In this document: positions 2,703-47,737 of the stretch, piece by piece
How the letters are laid out: each line of letters starts with the position of its first letter
Position numbering within the stretch: the first letter of the stretch is position 1
Origin: Solirubrobacterales bacterium
GTDB lineage: Bacteria; Actinomycetota; Thermoleophilia; Solirubrobacterales; Solirubrobacteraceae
DNA: 64,000 nt
Direction: 5' to 3'
NCBI GenBank assembly: GCA_019240115.1
Contig: JAFAYV010000006.1
Location: 1-64,000, forward strand
Position numbers and translations under genes: made by a program
Notes under the pieces: model-generated
What the model saw: the letters and a program-made list of their open reading frames with translations, nothing else
Databases searched by the model: none
What the model was told of the DNA's origin: nothing

Positions 2703-4098
<1,396 letters not shown>

Positions 4099-7925: not shown

Positions 7926-9176
7926 GTGAACGGGCGATCCGCCGGACTTGACCGGGCCAGCGGCGTGCAGCTGCACATCACCTCGCTGCCCGGAGGACGG
8001 CTCGGACGCGAGGCCTACCGGTTCGTCGACTGGCTGCAGGCGGCCGGCCAGTCGTGGTGGCAGGTGCTGCCGCTCGGCCCGCCCGACCGTCATCACTCGC
8101 CCTACAAGTCCAGCTCGGCGTTCGCCGCCTGGCCGGGCCTGCTCGCCGACCGACGCGCGCCGGTGTCCGCCGACGAGATGCTCGAGTTCCGCGAGCGCCA
8201 GGCGTTCTGGATCGATGACTGGGAGCGCTACTGCACTCGCGGGGCGGTCGCCGACCAGGTCCGCTTCGATCGCGAGTGGGGGGCGCTGCGGTGCTACGCG
8301 GCCGAGCGCGGGGTGCGGATCATGGGCGACGTGGCGATCTACGTCTCCTCCGACGGCGCCGACCGACGCTTCCACCCCGAGCTGTTCCAGACCGGCCTGG
8401 TCGCCGGCGCGCCGCCCGACGCCTACGCCACCGACGGCCAGCTGTGGGGCAATCCGCTGTACGACTGGCCGGCGCTGCAGCGCCGCGGCTACCGCTGGTG
8501 GGTGGAGCGGGTGCGGCGCACGCTCGACCTCTTCGACCTCGCGCGGATCGACCACTTCCGGGGCCTGGTCGCCTACTGGGCGGTGCCCGCGGGGTCGCGC
8601 AGCGCCCGCCGCGGCTCCTGGCGCCGGGGCCCGGGGATCGCGCTCTTTCGCGCTCTGGAGCGCGGCCTCGGCGCCCGGCCGCCGCTCGTCGCCGAGGACC
8701 TCGGCGTGATCACGCCTCCGGTCGAGGCGCTGCGGACGCGGCTCGGGCTGCCGGGGATGCTCGTCATCCAGTTCGGGATGGACCCGGGCGATCCCGCCAG
8801 TCCCCACCGGCTCGAGAACCACGCCCCCGACCGGATCGTCTACACCGGCACCCACGACCAGGACACCACCCGCGGCTGGCTTGAGTCGCTCGGTTGCGAG
8901 CAGCGCGCGTTCGTCGACTGCGAGGTCGCCCGGCACGGCTTCGCCGATCGCCGGCAGCCGTGGTGGGGGCTGATCCGGCTGACCTTCTCCTCGCCCGCGA
9001 TCGTCGCGATGGTCCAGGCCCAGGACGTGCTCGGCCTCGGCTCGGAGGCGCGGATGAACGTCCCCGCGTCGGCCGGGGGCAGCTGGCGCTGGCAGATGCG
9101 GCCGGGCGCGCTGACCCCGGCGCTCGCCCGAGAGCTGCGCGAGGTCACCCAGGAGTCGGGCCGCCTGGCCGGGTAG
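7926..9176 (+). CDS. malQ: 4-alpha-glucanotransferase (amylomaltase), short form
   Basis: The protein has 416 residues from the GTG at 7926. It shows SGVQLHITSLPGGRLG near the N-terminus, then SPYKSSSAFA, GNPLYDWPALQRRGYRWW, ARIDHFRGLVAYWAVPAG (catalytic Asp), LVAEDLGVITPPVEALR (acid/base Glu) and GTHDQDTTRGW (third Asp). MalQ disproportionates short maltodextrins. It is shorter than the roughly 500 residues usual for bacterial MalQ: a segment after the ERQAFWIDDWERY stretch, normally carrying a W-rich block, seems contracted. It is divergent from glgE with only 46 nt between the starts, so the two probably share control. The next gene starts 18 nt downstream. Confidence 0.92.
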   Translation: MNGRSAGLDRASGVQLHITSLPGGRLGREAYRFVDWLQAAGQSWWQVLPLGPPDRHHSPYKSSSAFAAWPGLLADRRAPVSADEMLEFRERQAFWIDDWERYCTRGAVADQVRFDREWGALRCYAAERGVRIMGDVAIYVSSDGADRRFHPELFQTGLVAGAPPDAYATDGQLWGNPLYDWPALQRRGYRWWVERVRRTLDLFDLARIDHFRGLVAYWAVPAGSRSARRGSWRRGPGIALFRALERGLGARPPLVAEDLGVITPPVEALRTRLGLPGMLVIQFGMDPGDPASPHRLENHAPDRIVYTGTHDQDTTRGWLESLGCEQRAFVDCEVARHGFADRRQPWWGLIRLTFSSPAIVAMVQAQDVLGLGSEARMNVPASAGGSWRWQMRPGALTPALARELREVTQESGRLAG

Positions 9177-11308: not shown

Positions 11309-13453
11309 TTGCCGACAGTCACCCTCCCATACGACGGAAGCCGCGACGTGCAGCGTTCCGCGTCCGACCTCACCGAGCGCCTGCCCGAGCCGTTGGCGCC
11401 GCTCGCCCGCCTCGCCTTCAACTACCGCTGGGCGTGGCTGCCCGGCGGCTACGAGCTGTTCGCCGCGCTGCACGCCGAGCGCTTCGCCCTGTGCGCGTTC
11501 AATCCGGTGCGGCTGCTGCAGGAGTGCAGCGCCGGGACGCTGCGCCGCGCCGCGCAGGACGCCGGTCTCGTCGCGCGGGCGCGCGAGCTCGAGGCCCAGC
11601 TGATCGCCGATCTCGAGCGCCCGCCCGCCGACGACGTCGTCGCCGCGGCGCATCCGGTCGCCTATATCAGCGCCGAGTTCGGCGTCCACGTGTCGCTGCC
11701 GGTCTACTCCGGCGGCCTCGGCGCGCTCGCCGGCGACCTGCTCAAGGAGGCCTCCGACCGCGCCCTGCCGATGGTCGCCGTCGGCCTCATGTACCGCAAG
11801 GGCTACTTCCGCCAGCGCATCGACGCCTCCGGCTGGCAGCACGAGTACTGGGTCGAGACCGATCCCGAGCGGCTGCCCGCTGGTCTGGTCACCGGCGCCG
11901 ACGAGCGGCCGCTGACCGTGGCCCTGCCGATCGGCGAGGCCGACGTGACCGCGCGGATCTGGCGCGTCGACGTCGGCCGCGTGCCCCTCTATCTGCTCGA
12001 CACCGACTGCGAGGAGAACGCCCCGCTCGAGCGGTGGATCACCGGCCGGCTGTACGACGGCGACCCTCACACGCGGCTGGCGCAGTACACGCTGCTCGGG
12101 ATCGGCGGCGTGCGCGCGCTGCGCGCGATGGGCCACGATCCCGGCGTCATCCACCTCAACGAGGGTCACGCCGCGCTGGCGCCGCTCGAGCTGGCGCGCG
12201 ACGGCGCGGAGTCGCGTCTGCAGGAGGCGCTGCGACAGGCGCGCGCGCGGACGGTGTTCACCACGCACACCCCGGTGCCGGCGGGCAACGACTCCTATCC
12301 GGCCGACCAGGTCGAGGCCGCGGTCGGTCGCCTGGCGGGCGAGCTCGGCTGTTCGGTGCAGGAGCTGACCGCGCTCGGCCACGATCATGGCGCCGAGCCC
12401 GGCTCGCGCTTCGGCGTCACCCAGGCGGCGCTGCGCATGAGCCGCGCCGCCAACGCGGTCAGCCGCCGCCACGGCGAGGTGGCGCGCGAGATGTGGCGCC
12501 AGCTGTGGCCCGACGCCGCGCCCGACGGGGTGCCGATCGGCCATGTCACCAACGGCGTCCACGTCCCCACCTGGCTGGGCGCGCCGATGCGCGACCTGTT
12601 CGATCGTCACCTGCGCGCCGGCTGGTGTGACCGCGCCGACGATCCCGCGACGTGGGCCGGCGTCGACGCGATCCCCGACGCCGAGCTGTGGGAGACGCGC
12701 CGGCGCCAGCGCGCCGAGCTCGTGGAGTACGTGCGGACGCGCAGCGTCGCCGACCGCCTCACGCGCGGCGACCTGCGCGGCTACGTCGACGCCGCCGCGC
12801 GGGCGTTCGAACCCGACGTGCTGACGATCGGCTTTGCGCGGCGGGTGGCCACCTACAAGCGGCTGGACCTGCTCATCCGCGACCCCGATTGGACGCTGGC
12901 GATGCTCGCGGGCGACCGTCCCGTCCAGGTCGTGCTCGCCGGCAAGGCGCATCCCCGCGACGAGGAGGCCAAGCGGGCGCTGCAGAGCCTGTTCGGGCTC
13001 AAGGGCGCTCGCGTCATCGGCGAGCGCGTCGTGTTCCTCGACGACTACGACCTGCACTCGGCGGCGCGCCTGGTCCGCGGCTGCGACGTGTGGCTGAACG
13101 TCCCGCGCCCGCCGCTGGAGGCGAGCGGGACGAGCGGGATGAAGTCGGTGTTCAACGGCGGCCTGCAGCTGAGCGTGCTCGACGGCTGGTGGGCCGAGGC
13201 CTACGCCCCCGGCAATGGCTGGGCGATCCCCGGCGAGGTCGAGTTCGACCACCACGCCCAGGACGAGCGCCACGCCGCGGCGCTGCACCAACTGCTCGAG
13301 CACGAGGTCGTCCCGACCTTCTACGACCGCGACGAGGCGGGGATCGCGCCCCGCTGGATGGCGATGGTGCGCGCTTCGCTGCGCGATCACGGTCCGCGGT
13401 TCTCGGCGACGCGGATGCTCGCCGAGTACGTGGACGGCCCCTATCGCGCGTGA
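11309..13453 (+). CDS. glgP: Alpha-glucan phosphorylase (GT35)
   Basis: The protein has 714 residues if the TTG at 11309 is used. A GTG at 11348 has a better Shine-Dalgarno (GGAAG, 7 nt upstream) and would give 701 residues. It is the shorter bacterial/archaeal type of phosphorylase: [59 protein letters not shown] and the pyridoxal-phosphate lysine K612 in [15 protein letters not shown]. It releases glucose-1-phosphate from the glucan built by the GlgE operon. Its stop codon is the first unit of a tandem repeat that runs to the start of the amidase gene. Confidence 0.94.
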
Positions 13454-13606
13454 CCCAGCCGCCACGCGTGACCGAGCCGCCGCGCTGACCGAGCCGGCGC
13501 CGTGATCGAGCTGCCGCGCGTGACCGAGCCGGCGCGGTGACCGAGCCGGCGCGGTGATCGAGCTGCCCCGCGTGACCGAGCCGGCGCGGTGACCGAGCTG
13601 CTGCGG
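13451..13606. repeat. Nine-unit tandem repeat spanning the glgP stop and amidase start
   Basis: Nine copies of a 17-18 nt unit of the form TGAccgagccggcgcgg begin at 13451, 13469, 13486, 13503, 13521, 13538, 13555, 13573 and 13590. The spacing 18-17-17 recurs, so three units form a 52-nt higher-order repeat seen almost three times. The first TGA is the glgP stop, and the last unit holds the GTGA that starts the amidase gene. Most units carry GTGA, that is, a potential start and stop overlapping. There are no spacers, so this is not a CRISPR. Confidence 0.9.
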
Positions 13607-19254: not shown

Positions 19255-20310
19255 TCAGCGTGCAAGCTGCGTTGCAAGCCCGACCCGGACCAGCCAGTCG
19301 GCGGGCCGGCGCAGCTCGGCAAGCGTCGGAAGCGCCTCGGGCTTCGAGAACACGTGGTGCAGCGCGTCGGGCCCGGCATCCCGGACGATCGCGTCGCAAA
19401 AGAACTTGCCCTGCTCGTACTGGCGCAGCTTGAGATCGAGTCCCAGCAGCTTGGCGAGCAGGCGGGAGAGGCCCGTCTGGGAGCGGCGCCGGCGGTCCAG
19501 CGCGGAGCGCAGGCGCGGGAGCGAGGGCAGCAGGTCGGGCGCGACGGCATCCATGACGTGTTCGGCGTGGCCCTCGATGACCGCCATCGTCGCCTGCACC
19601 CGATCGAGCGTGTCGCGCTCGGAGGCGTTGGTGAAGACCGCGATGAGATCGCCCTGACGGACCGCCGCCGCGACGCGCTTGATCTCGGCAGCGGCGGGCA
19701 CGCGCAGCCGGCGCGGGGTCTCGATCCGCAGCTCGGCGCTGCGCAGCAGCTCGCGCACGAGGCCCCCGAGGTGGCTCTGCAGCCAGGGCACGGCGGCGAA
19801 CTGGACGGCGTGGGTGACCTCGTGCAGCGCGACCCAGGTCATGAACTCGTCGCCGGGGGACTGCAGGGAGCGCACCGCGGCCCCGAGGTTGGGCATCACG
19901 AAGAGCAGCCGCGGCGGATGCTCGTGGGTCTCGTCGAGCAGCACGAGCTCGTACTGGCCGAGCACGCGCTGGCTGAGGTAGCCGAGCAGCACCCCGACCT
20001 CGATGGTGACGACGACCCCGACCGCGAGCTGGACCGCCGGACGCAGCGCGGTGAGGCCGTCGCCGGCGCTCTCGAGCACGGGCTCCATCAGCCGGCGCAT
20101 CGCCTCGACGTTCGTGCGCGCCCACTCGCGCCGATCGACGCCCTCGGGCGGCGGCAGCGGGCGCTGCGGCGCAAGGCCCGTGTAGGCGACGACCCGGCGC
20201 TCGGCCTCGGCGGCGAGCCGCGACAGGTCGGTCTCGGGCGGGGACGCCGGCGACCCGCCGGCGCTCGCCACGTAGCGCGCGATCCGCTCGGCCAGCACCC
20301 AGTCGATCAT
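19255..20310 (-). CDS. Zincin_2 family zinc metalloprotease-like protein (F420-associated)
   Basis: The protein has 351 residues from the ATG at 20310. It carries a zinc-binding HExxH (ALHEVTHAVQF) near residue 165 and the family pattern DWVLAERIARYVAS at the N-terminus. This matches the actinobacterial Zincin_2 group (PF10103), which tracks with genomes that make coenzyme F420. No proteolytic role has been shown as far as I know. The adjacent F420-type oxidoreductase fits the association. The start codon sits in the last of three 20-nt repeats, the first of which holds the stop of the upstream phosphatase gene. Confidence 0.88.
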   Translation of the reverse strand: MIDWVLAERIARYVASAGGSPASPPETDLSRLAAEAERRVVAYTGLAPQRPLPPPEGVDRREWARTNVEAMRRLMEPVLESAGDGLTALRPAVQLAVGVVVTIEVGVLLGYLSQRVLGQYELVLLDETHEHPPRLLFVMPNLGAAVRSLQSPGDEFMTWVALHEVTHAVQFAAVPWLQSHLGGLVRELLRSAELRIETPRRLRVPAAAEIKRVAAAVRQGDLIAVFTNASERDTLDRVQATMAVIEGHAEHVMDAVAPDLLPSLPRLRSALDRRRRSQTGLSRLLAKLLGLDLKLRQYEQGKFFCDAIVRDAGPDALHHVFSKPEALPTLAELRRPADWLVRVGLATQLAR

Positions 20311-20350
20311 GCCCGCACCCGCTCGATCATGCCCGCACCCGCTCGATCAT
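20291..20350. repeat. Three 20-nt repeats joining a stop and a start codon
   Basis: Units 20311-20330 and 20331-20350 are identical, and 20291-20310 differs at three bases. On the minus strand each unit starts with ATGATCGA. The first ATGA provides the TGA stop of the phosphatase gene (20347-20349), and the last provides the ATG of the Zincin_2 gene (20310). An ancestral ATGA overlap multiplied in tandem explains the layout. Confidence 0.9.
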
Positions 20351-21192
20351 GCCGGAACCCGGAGCAGCTCGCGAAGACCGTCCTCGCTGCGCGCGGCGAC
20401 GAGATGAGAGCTCGCGGTCGCATCGAGCGGCGCGCCGAGCGGTAGCGGGCAGTCGGGGAAGCTGACCAGGCCGCCGGCTTCGCGGACGATCAGCTGGCCC
20501 GCGGCGGCGTCGACGCCGCGGCAACGCCGCAGGGTGACCATCCCGTCGAAGCGGGCGGCCGCCACCTGGCAGAGCGTTGAGGCGATCGTGCCGAGCGCCC
20601 GCAGCCGATGCGCGCTGGCCAGCAGCCCGTCGATCGACTGCGCCACCCAGCGAGGATCCGAGGACTCGATGCCGACGAGCTCGAGCTTGCCGTCGCGCGC
20701 GCGGCGCTCGGGGAGCGTCGGGTCGAGCTCGACCCCGTTGCGGAAGGCGCCGCGACCGGACGCCGCCCACCACTCCTCCTCGCAGCCGAAGTCGTGGACG
20801 AACCCGAACACGACGTCGGCCATCGTCGGACCGTCGGCGACCGCGACCGAGACGGCGTAGTGCAGCGCGTCGCGCTTGGCGTTCGTCGAGCCGTCGATCG
20901 GGTCGATGATGACCCGGACCCCGTCGCCGCCGAAGCTGACCTCGCCGCGCTCCTCGGAGATCGCCTCGAAGTCAAAGCCCGCGTCGTGGAGGCCCGCGAG
21001 CTGCTCGAGCACGATCGACTCGGCGGTCCGGTCAAGCACGAGCGTGCGATCCCCACCACTGCCGCGCGTGCCGGTCTCGACGGCTCGCTCGGCGGTCTCC
21101 GCCGCGGCCGCGAGCATCTCCCGCAGGCCGGTCGCCGATCGCCGGCACGCCCCGAGCCAATCCGCCTCCAATGCCGTCCGTGCGCCCGTCAT
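20347..21192 (-). CDS. Inositol-monophosphatase-family phosphatase
   Basis: The protein has 281 residues. It has the metal-binding motifs of the Li-sensitive phosphatase family: AISEERGE, IIDPIDGSTNAKRD near residue 95-108 and GVDAAAGQLIVREAGG near 225-240 (usual form WDxAAG). Possible substrates are inositol phosphates, histidinol phosphate, fructose-1,6-bisphosphate or PAP. The sequence alone does not decide. It lies upstream of the Zincin_2 gene in the same direction and is divergent from the helicase-nuclease gene, with only a few bases between. Confidence 0.9.
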   Translation of the reverse strand: MTGARTALEADWLGACRRSATGLREMLAAAAETAERAVETGTRGSGGDRTLVLDRTAESIVLEQLAGLHDAGFDFEAISEERGEVSFGGDGVRVIIDPIDGSTNAKRDALHYAVSVAVADGPTMADVVFGFVHDFGCEEEWWAASGRGAFRNGVELDPTLPERRARDGKLELVGIESSDPRWVAQSIDGLLASAHRLRALGTIASTLCQVAAARFDGMVTLRRCRGVDAAAGQLIVREAGGLVSFPDCPLPLGAPLDATASSHLVAARSEDGLRELLRVPA

Positions 21193-35603: not shown

Positions 35604-36509
35604 GTGATCGCCGACGTCCACCAGCACGTCTGGCCGCCCACGCTCGTCGAGGCGCTGCGCGAGCGGCGCCGGCCGCCGCGACTGCGCGGCTGGACGCTCG
35701 AGCTCGCCGGCGAGCCGGACTTCCCGATCGAGCCCGCCGATCACGACCCCGAGCGCCGCGCCGCGCTCGCGCGCGCCGACGGGCTCGACCTCGCGCTCGT
35801 GTCGCTCTCCGCCCCGCTCGGGATCGAGCGGCTGCCGGGGGCCGCGGGCGCGGAGCTGCTCGCCGCCTACCACGAGGGCGCGCTCGCGCTGCCCCCGCCG
35901 CTGCGCCCGTGGGCGGCCGCCGCGCTGCACGAGATCGACCCCGGGGCGCTCGCGACCGAGCTCGATCGGGGGTGCGTCGGCCTCCAGCTGCCGGCGACGG
36001 CGCTCGCCGACCCCGGCGGGTTCGCGCGCGTCGCGCCGCTGCTCGAGGTGCTCGAGCGCGACGACCGGCCGCTGTTCGTCCATCCCGGCCCGGTCGCGCC
36101 GGCGGCGCGACGCGGCCCCTCGTGGTGGCCGGCGATCGTCGACTACGTCCAGCAGATGCATGCCGCCTGGTACGCCTTCCGCGCCGTGGGCCGCCGCGCC
36201 CATCCGCGCCTGCGCGTCTGCTTCGCGATGCTCGCCGGGCTCGCGCCGCTGCACGGCGAGCGCTTCCACGCGCGGACCGGCGAGCGCAGCGTCGTCGATC
36301 CCGCCGCGTTCCTGGAGATCTCGTCCTACGGGACGCGGGCGATCGACGCCGTCGTCCGCGTGCTCGGCATCGACGTGCTCGTCAACGGTTCGGATCGACC
36401 GTACGCGGCGCCGCCCGCGCCCGGGCTCGGCGACGCGGCCGCGTTCGCGCTGCGCAGCGCCAATCCCATCCGTCTTCTGCAACCCGAATCCGAGGAGGTG
36501 TCCCCGTGA
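35604..36509 (+). CDS. Amidohydrolase-2-like metal-dependent hydrolase
   Basis: The protein has 301 residues from a GTG. Metal ligands of the amidohydrolase TIM barrel are visible: H6 and H8 in ADVHQHVWP, H160 in PLFVHPGPV and D264 in LVNGSDRPYAAP. This is the family that includes ACMSD-like decarboxylases and lactone hydrolases. It is adjacent to a cupin dioxygenase-like gene and under likely LacI control, so a small catabolic step is probable. The substrate is unknown. Its stop codon lies in the first of two 26-nt repeats. Confidence 0.85.
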   Translation: MIADVHQHVWPPTLVEALRERRRPPRLRGWTLELAGEPDFPIEPADHDPERRAALARADGLDLALVSLSAPLGIERLPGAAGAELLAAYHEGALALPPPLRPWAAAALHEIDPGALATELDRGCVGLQLPATALADPGGFARVAPLLEVLERDDRPLFVHPGPVAPAARRGPSWWPAIVDYVQQMHAAWYAFRAVGRRAHPRLRVCFAMLAGLAPLHGERFHARTGERSVVDPAAFLEISSYGTRAIDAVVRVLGIDVLVNGSDRPYAAPPAPGLGDAAAFALRSANPIRLLQPESEEVSP

Positions 36510-36536
36510 CCGAATCCGAGGAGGTGTCCCGGTGAC
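36485..36536 (+). repeat. 26-nt tandem duplication of a Shine-Dalgarno/stop/start module
   Basis: 36485-36510 and 36511-36536 are identical except for one base. Each copy carries AGGAGG (36493-36498 and 36519-36524) and, 7 nt later, GTGA. In the first copy the TGA is the amidohydrolase stop; in the second the GTG starts the dioxygenase-like gene. The first GTG also opens a 9-codon mini-frame that ends in the second GTGA. Confidence 0.92.
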
Positions 36537-37047
36537 CATGCGCGACCTGCCCCCCCGCAACCTCGACCGCCACGAGCTCCTCGCGCTCGTGCGACGACTG
36601 AGCTCAGAACCGGTGCGCTGGCGCCAGTACGTCGACTACTCCGACGAGCGTCGCGTGTTCGCCTCGCTGTACCGCGACGACTACGTCGACGTCTGGCTGC
36701 TGTGTTGGACGCGCAGCAACGACACCGGCTGGCACGACCACGACATCTCGTCGGGCGCGGTCCGCGTCGTGCAGGGCGCGCTCGCCGAGGCCAATCCGCG
36801 CATCGGGGCCGAGCCGGTCACCCGCCTGGTGACCGCGGGCGAGGCGTTCGCCTTCGGCCCCGACCACATCCACCGCCTCAGCGGCGCGCGCGATCGTTCG
36901 GTGTCCATCCACGCCTACTCCCCCCCGCTCTGGCGCCTGGGCCAGTATGCCGTGGACGACGACGGCGTGATGCACCGCCAGTCGATCAGCTACGCCGACG
37001 AGCTGCGCCCGCTCCAGGAGGCGGCCGCTCTGCCTGGGCCCCGATGA
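36532..37047 (+). CDS. Cysteine-dioxygenase-like cupin
   Basis: The protein has 171 residues from the GTG at 36532 with AGGAGG 7 nt upstream; the ATG at 36538 is an alternative. The cupin metal motif is H68-D-H70 in GWHDHDISSGAVRVVQGAL with a second set in FGPDHIHRLSGA (H112, H114). This fits the Fe(II) cysteine dioxygenase superfamily, which oxidises thiols or related acids. With the upstream amidohydrolase it may act on a sulfur- or nitrogen-containing compound. Its last 62 nt overlap the 3' end of the gene on the other strand. Confidence 0.82.
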   Translation: MTMRDLPPRNLDRHELLALVRRLSSEPVRWRQYVDYSDERRVFASLYRDDYVDVWLLCWTRSNDTGWHDHDISSGAVRVVQGALAEANPRIGAEPVTRLVTAGEAFAFGPDHIHRLSGARDRSVSIHAYSPPLWRLGQYAVDDDGVMHRQSISYADELRPLQEAAALPGPR

Positions 37048-47604: not shown

Positions 47605-47688
47605 CTCTCTCCTCGCGTCGTTGACGACGATGCGCATCGTCGCACGCTGAAAGCGGGCGACGTAAGCGCAGCGTCAGGGTTTCATTTC

Positions 47689-47728
47689 ATACCGACATAC
47701 CGACATACCGACATACCGACATACCGAC
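47689..47728. repeat. Five copies of the octamer ATACCGAC
   Basis: Five perfect copies of ATACCGAC run from 47689 to 47728, followed by ACACCGA. The array lies 85-124 nt upstream of the SatP-like gene start, in its leader or promoter. The AT content is much higher than in the surroundings. A change in unit number would shift promoter spacing by 8 bp. Confidence 0.9.
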
Positions 47729-47737
47729 ACACCGAAG

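What the first reader, a model, noticed from the sequence alone, without database searches (positions are those of the whole stretch)
20291..20350. ATGA overlap copied three times between the phosphatase and Zincin_2 genes
Each 20-nt unit begins with ATGATCGA on the coding strand. The first TGA ends one gene and the last ATG starts the next. The degenerate last unit is inside the coding region and the upstream two are identical, so the extra copies are young and derive from the start of the Zincin_2 gene.
Basis: seen in the sequence. Interest (0 to 1): 0.55.

Follow-up and report, generated by a model that had tools for sequence, protein, structure and literature searches.

The report
Tandem start-stop relay between coupled genes
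Between two neighbouring genes of a soil bacterium the four letters that end one gene and start the next have been copied in tandem, making a chain of tiny reading frames that could hand ribosomes from gene to gene, and the same arrangement turns up at other gene junctions of this genome.

Summary
On the minus strand, ATGATCGA-units of 20 nt lie at 20331-20350, 20311-20330 (identical) and 20291-20310 (3 differences, start of Zincin_2). The first TGA ends an inositol-monophosphatase-family gene; the last ATG starts Zincin_2.

Because 20 = 3x6+2, each copy is a 7-codon ORF (MIERVRA*) that begins on one ATGA and stops on the next, so the start/stop overlap is unbroken through two mini-ORFs. A second species (G011) independently grew a 20-nt array at the same junction, also with an unbroken link. 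A uniform scan of 2.60 Mb from five genomes of the genus found 10 such arrays (20-38 nt, 2-8 copies; one in a complete chromosome): all 10 have period 3n+2 and unbroken chains. Planted duplications of the other phases were detected equally well. Microhomology alone would favour 3n+2 (44-60%), leaving p about 0.0003-0.006.

Best reading: slippage at translationally coupled junctions, retained where mini-ORFs keep coupling. Closest known: mycobacterial MIRUs, but these units are local and short. Reinitiation was not measured.

The parts
20347..21192 (-). upstream gene, inositol monophosphatase family; stop TGA at 20347-20349
   Evidence: ORF; Pfam Inositol_P E 4.7e-30
20347..20350 (-). first ATGA: stop of the upstream gene / start of mini-ORF 1
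20331..20350 (-). 20-nt unit 1, ATGATCGAGCGGGTGCGGGC
20311..20330 (-). 20-nt unit 2, identical to unit 1
20291..20310 (-). 20-nt unit 3, ATGATCGACTGGGTGCTGGC, the first codons of Zincin_2 (ancestral copy)
20351..20361 (-). partial unit: last codons of the phosphatase, similar to the unit's tail (9 of its last 12 letters), the probable slippage partner
   Evidence: TRF; count
20327..20350 (-). mini-ORF 1, MIERVRA*, ends in the ATGA that starts mini-ORF 2
   Evidence: chain
20307..20330 (-). mini-ORF 2, MIERVRA*, ends in the ATGA that starts Zincin_2
   Evidence: chain
19255..20310 (-). downstream gene, Zincin_2 metallopeptidase family (TIGR03883, F420-associated)
35604..36509 (+). upstream gene of the second relay (no Pfam match at 1e-5)
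36506..36535 (+). second relay: 26-nt duplication (array 36484-36537), mini-ORF GTG...TGA (V/M TESEEVSR*), GTGA at both ends, AGGAGGTG repeated in each copy
36532..37047 (+). downstream gene of the second relay, cysteine dioxygenase family; it may start at GTG 36532 or ATG 36538
13450..13592 (+). third, compound chain: nine NTGA spaced 18,17,17,18,17,17,18,17; five mini-ORFs link a DUF3417/phosphorylase gene to an amidase gene, one step through CTGA
   Evidence: partners

Best explanation
A start/stop overlap (NTGA) between two co-directional genes was duplicated in tandem by slippage between short similar stretches at the end of the first gene and the start of the second. Shown from sequence: any tandem duplication across an NTGA leaves both proteins whole; if its period is 3n+2, each extra copy is a complete mini-ORF made of the first codons of the downstream gene joined to the last codons of the upstream gene, starting and stopping on NTGA. 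The chain is unbroken at this junction (two mini-ORFs) and at all other arrays found by the scan. Inferred: ribosomes ending the phosphatase reinitiate at the overlapping ATG, read seven codons, stop, reinitiate again, and so reach Zincin_2; duplications that would put an uncoupled gap (here 36 nt) between the genes are lost, so the surviving arrays are those that keep coupling. Each step probably costs some efficiency, so copy number may set the output of the downstream gene (speculative).
For: All 10 of 10 arrays that span an NTGA junction in 2.60 Mb of five genomes have period 3n+2 (20,26,38,23,20,38,23,23,32,35) and unbroken chains; 342 plain NTGA junctions were counted in the same DNA. 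Planted duplications of all three phases were recovered in 192-198 of 198 junctions, so the scan does not prefer 3n+2. Arrays with no coding flank have no phase preference (22:16:25 for phases 0:1:2) and arrays inside genes are 71:7:7 (pooled). An independent 20-nt array at the same junction in G011 also ends in an unbroken link although its second unit has lost GTGA; its sister in the tree (G027) and that of the window's genome (G019) have plain GTGA. Partners include pairs for which balanced synthesis is plausible: GatA-GatB, sensor kinase-response regulator, ABC ATPase-FtsX, SIS-HypF with eight copies. One array is in a genome held as a single contig (G022, 3.64 Mb; the same locus is named Conexibacter sp. 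DBS9H8). Published: 38 nt between genes cuts coupling by 80-90% or abolishes it and the last 15 nt of an upstream gene suffice for reinitiation in E. coli (PMC10666635, abstract and sections 6 and 7).
Against: Part of the phase bias is mutational: at 337 plain junctions microhomologies of 3-7 nt that could mediate a spanning duplication fall in phase 3n+2 in 44-60% of cases, so 10 of 10 has p about 0.0003-0.006, not 1.7e-5. That mini-ORFs have no internal stop follows automatically once the phase is 3n+2. No expression or ribosome data. Only 4 of 11 relay downstream starts (10 scan arrays plus G011) have anti-SD pairing of -5 kcal/mol or better, against 67% of plain junctions, which could mean weak reinitiation. 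No relay in 43 junctions of 80 named loci or 20 of 26 genus loci (that scan cannot see G011's degenerate array).
Confidence: 0.66

Rival explanations
1. Neutral slippage: coupled junctions often carry in-phase microhomology because both genes have the same codon bias, so duplications of 3n+2 arise most often and persist by chance; the mini-ORFs have no role.
For: Microhomology alone gives 44-60% of phase 3n+2; this genome is rich in short tandem arrays (0.23 per kb); the two extra units here are identical, so young.
Against: 10 of 10 still exceeds 44-60% (p 0.0003-0.006); phases 0 and 1 would be expected about four to six times in ten. Arrays at NTGA are more frequent than the genome-wide array density predicts (8 against 1.7 in the window's genome), although coding sequence is a conservative baseline.
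Confidence: 0.27
2. The last ATG is used by de novo initiation; the array is just a spacer and coupling does not matter.
For: The two downstream starts of the Zincin_2 array have anti-SD pairing of -8.4 kcal/mol; the 26-nt relay carries AGGAGGTG in both copies.
Against: Five of the ten scan arrays have no downstream start better than -4 kcal/mol; de novo initiation gives no reason for a fixed phase. The RNA shows no unusual folding (z = 1.14).
Confidence: 0.15
3. A copy-number dial: the arrays are variable-number repeats that tune downstream expression through repeated imperfect reinitiation.
For: Copy numbers from 2 to 8; different counts at the same junction in two species (3 and 5 units).
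Against: No strain-level copy-number variation could be examined (one genome per species); no expression data.
Confidence: 0.2
4. Insertion of a mobile or dispersed repeat family, as with MIRUs.
For: Same architecture at NTGA sites.
Against: The unit has no further copy with fewer than 2 mismatches in the genome; each array found has its own unit, built from its own flanking genes.
Confidence: 0.03
5. Assembly artefact.
For: The window's genome is a draft of 99 contigs.
Against: The array is about 70 bases, shorter than a read; one similar array lies in a genome held as one contig (G022); G011 was assembled independently and the same array is in its named record L051; copies in other arrays carry distinct substitutions.
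Confidence: 0.02

Closest known systems
MIRUs (mycobacterial interspersed repetitive units, e.g. senX3-regX3)
   Same: Short repeats placed at a start/stop overlap between operon genes; an ORF in the repeat is coupled to the flanking gene with -4 spacing, thought to spare expression (passage in PMC12548453). Unit sizes of 77 and 53 bp (PMC4213456 passage) are also 3n+2.
   Different: MIRUs are a dispersed, apparently mobile family of 53-77 bp or more; here each array is a private 17-38-nt duplication of its own junction.
Plain NTGA gene overlaps coupled by termination-reinitiation
   Same: This is the ancestral state at the junction (20 of 25 genus loci with both genes) and the presumed mechanism (PMC6728339 passages, PMC10666635 sections).
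   Different: The handover is repeated two to seven times through mini-ORFs of 7-13 codons; in G011 it is one 27-codon ORF.
uORF / bicistronic-design leaders that deliver a ribosome to a coupled gene
   Same: A short ORF whose only job may be to bring a ribosome to the next start (PMC12548453 passage).
   Different: Here the short ORFs lie between two genes and are tandem copies.
Bacterial VNTRs / minisatellites
   Same: Tandem slippage repeats with differing copy number.
   Different: They sit exactly on start/stop overlaps and keep one phase.

Membership tests
MIRU | ORF in the unit overlaps flanking ORFs at NTGA (-4) | tested here: met
   both mini-ORFs
MIRU | unit length 3n+2 | tested here: met
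   20 nt; all 10 scan arrays
MIRU | dispersed family: same unit at many loci | tested here: not met
   no other place with fewer than 2 mismatches in 4.03 Mb; units differ between arrays
MIRU | unit of about 53-77 bp or more | tested here: not met
   20 nt; sizes for MIRU from PMC4213456 passage
Termination-reinitiation coupled pair | start codon overlaps the preceding stop (-4 or -1) | tested here: met
   each link of the chain is ATGA; plain -4 or -1 in 21 of 25 genus loci with both genes
Termination-reinitiation coupled pair | translation of the downstream gene depends on translation of the upstream one | not testable with these tools
   needs reporters or ribosome profiling
VNTR | copy number varies between strains of one species | not testable with these tools
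   one genome per species held; between species the junction has 1, 3 or 5 units

The most novel reading that the evidence does not exclude
Relay minisatellites: in some high-GC Actinomycetota several percent of start/stop overlaps (8 beside 203 plain ones in the part of this genome scanned) have grown into tandem chains of 7-13-codon ORFs that pass ribosomes stepwise from gene to gene, and copy number acts as a heritable dial on the ratio of the two proteins.
Probability: 0.25. Interest if true: 0.78.

Novelty: new variant of a known kind. Interest (0 to 1): 0.56.

Why it matters
It is a natural experiment on translational coupling. Published reporter work says about 20-38 nt between genes largely abolishes coupling; here evolution has put 22-136 nt between genes, apparently only in the phase that lets mini-ORFs bridge the gap. 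If the chain is translated, ribosomes can terminate and reinitiate up to seven times in a row, which is measurable, and gene finders and operon annotation would be missing a class of mini-ORFs. It also names a rule, period 3n+2, that separates a tolerated duplication from a damaging one and that MIRUs obey too.

Tried and rejected
Dispersed or mobile repeat: rejected, no near copies elsewhere. Known RNA element: no Rfam match in 20000-20700. Structured RNA: folding no better than shuffles, z = 1.14. A shared ancestral array in G000 and G011: rejected as less likely, since each has a sister with a plain overlap (support 0.98 and 0.92; FastTree on concatenated proteins of 31 loci) and only 2 of 232 genomes of the order match the two-unit pattern; the pattern would miss arrays built from a different unit or with more than one mismatch.

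Scan history: a first, crude scan and a looser one based on collapsing the array were replaced by the criterion. One search also listed NTGA-junction rows in phases 0 and 2 (five in phase 0, and three more in phase 2) in which the NTGA lay outside the repeated stretch or was not repeated; I dropped these eight before counting because the repeat does not span the overlap. Of the ten rows in phase 2, seven are the arrays then sampled. G011's Zincin_2 array and the compound array at 13450 do not meet the criterion (degenerate unit; mixed spacing) and are not in the 10 of 10. Of the arrays at other junctions, three with one simple period and the upstream stop inside the array were in phase 1 and one in phase 2; too few to use. 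Orthologues of the other relay junctions were sought only in DNA already held: two pairs found, one plain NTGA and one other arrangement. No paper on tandem duplication of start/stop overlaps was found in searches-57, 66 and 67 apart from MIRUs; the library lacks most subscription papers and Supply et al. 1997 was not read (seen only as a reference in PMC4213456).

Full report
What is there. On the minus strand the phosphatase-family gene (20347-21192, Inositol_P) ends ...CGG GTT CCG GCA TGA and the Zincin_2 gene (19255-20310) begins ATG ATC GAC TGG GTG CTG GCC. Between them lie two identical 20-nt units ATGATCGAGCGGGTGCGGGC, and the third unit is the Zincin_2 start itself, with 3 differences. 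Chance is excluded: 0 of 100 shuffles give three matches, and the unit is private to this place in the genome.

Reading the frames. 20 is 3x6+2, so the ATG of one unit is in frame with the TGA of the next. Each copy is therefore ATG ATC GAG CGG GTG CGG GCA TGA, MIERVRA*, and the junction reads stop/start, seven codons, stop/start, seven codons, stop/start, Zincin_2. In general a tandem duplication across an NTGA leaves both proteins untouched. Only the period matters: 3n+2 makes a mini-ORF (head of the downstream gene joined to the tail of the upstream one), 3n lengthens the downstream protein, 3n+1 sends ribosomes from the first start into the wrong frame.

Relatives. Of 26 genus loci (L001-L026), 20 have a plain NTGA, 1 TGATG, 2 arrays (the window's and G011's), 2 other arrangements, 1 lacks a gene; of 80 named loci (partly the same genomes) 34 NTGA, 3 TGATG, 14 other, 27 lack a gene, and 2 are linked through short ORFs: L051, the named record of G011, and L077, a 3-codon step without repeats. 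G011 carries five units at the same junction, four extra: the second has lost its GTGA and neighbouring units seem to carry a one-base loss and a one-base gain, yet the total shift, 80, is still 3n+2 and a single 27-codon ORF runs from the phosphatase stop to the Zincin_2 start. A pattern for two adjoining units (up to 1 mismatch) hits 2 of 232 genomes of the order, these two, with no hit of the control. In a tree of 31 concatenated protein pairs the window's genome groups with G019 and G011 with G027, both with plain GTGA, so the two arrays look independent. In both, similar stretches lie 20 nt apart on either side of the overlap, which explains the shared period (window: 9 of 14 letters; G011: GGATCC at both places, read).

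Not only here. A second relay lies in the window at 36506-36535 (26-nt duplication, one 9-codon mini-ORF, GTGA at both ends) and a compound one at 13450-13592 (nine NTGA spaced by 17 or 18; five mini-ORFs; one link is CTGA). I then scanned 2,601,359 bases of five genomes (window's genome 1,454,457; G022 600,000; G011 286,902; G021 200,000; G001 60,000) for arrays with NTGA in adjacent copies, a coding ORF ending at the first TGA and a coding ORF starting at the last NTG. Ten were found: eight in the window's genome, one in G022, one in G011; periods 26, 20, 38, 23, 20, 38, 23, 23, 32 and 35, all 3n+2, all chains unbroken, beside 342 plain NTGA junctions (203 in the window's genome). One array has eight 20-nt copies with several substitutions and all eight ATGA intact, linking a SIS-domain gene to hypF; another links gatA to gatB. 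The same scan found none in 80 named loci (491,031 bases, 43 plain junctions) and none in the 26 genus loci (100,592 bases, 20 junctions), where it cannot see G011's degenerate array.

Controls. Duplications of periods 20-25, 32-34 and 38-40 planted at 198 plain junctions were recovered 192-198 times for every phase. Arrays without coding flanks have phases 0:1:2 = 22:16:25 and arrays inside genes 71:7:7; the relays against the former give p = 0.0003 (Fisher). The most important counter-argument is mutational: because both genes share codon bias, microhomology across an NTGA is itself in phase, and at 337 plain junctions 44-60% of 3-7-nt microhomologies give 3n+2. With that expectation 10 of 10 has p between 0.0003 and 0.006. 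So selection is supported, not proven. Arrays at NTGA are also commoner than the genome's array density predicts (window's genome 8 against 1.7), but that baseline includes constrained coding sequence.

Mechanism. Reporter work in E. coli and Haloferax shows coupling by termination-reinitiation at -4 and -1 overlaps, strong loss at 14-38 nt spacing, and that the last 15 nt of an upstream gene suffice (PMC10666635, abstract and sections 6-7 read; PMC6728339, passages on SD motifs: SD helps but is not essential). The phosphatase stop and the Zincin_2 start are now 36 nt apart; by those results direct coupling should be nearly lost, whereas 7-codon mini-ORFs could bridge the gap. SD-like pairing at relay starts is mixed. 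Shown: anatomy, phase, recurrence, independent origins. Inferred: translation of the mini-ORFs, retention of coupling, and any dependence on copy number.

Known relatives. MIRUs of mycobacteria use the same trick with a dispersed 53-77-bp unit (passages in PMC12548453 and PMC4213456). The arrays here fail the MIRU definition (private units, short) but work like them. I found no report of locally born relays in the searches named above.

Noticed in passing
window 36484-36537 (+): 26-nt duplication of a GTGA junction with AGGAGGTG in each copy; same relay architecture before a cysteine-dioxygenase-family gene.
   Followed up: yes
window 13445-13606 (+): Compound 17/18-nt array (higher-order unit 52) linking a DUF3417/phosphorylase gene to an amidase gene through five mini-ORFs, one via CTGA.
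   Followed up: partly
L148:14264-14407 (-): Eight 20-nt ATGA units between a SIS-domain gene and hypF; seven successive 7-codon mini-ORFs.
   Followed up: partly
L226:4112-4161 (-): Three 23-nt GTGA units between gatA and gatB, subunits of one enzyme.
   Followed up: partly
L155:12815-12995 (+) and L147 (-) around 8447-8634 in reversed coordinates: 10-copy 20-nt and 8-copy 20/21-nt arrays carrying NTGA but without coding flanks on both sides by my score.
   Followed up: no
L077 (junction at 3001): NTGA, a 3-codon ORF, then GTGA before the Zincin_2 start, without any repeat.
   Followed up: no
L025 (G021:C1:1935486-1936520): Zincin_2 homologue with one in-frame TGA inside.
   Followed up: no
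window 47688-47735: Six near-perfect copies of the 8-mer CATACCGA (TRF).
   Followed up: no
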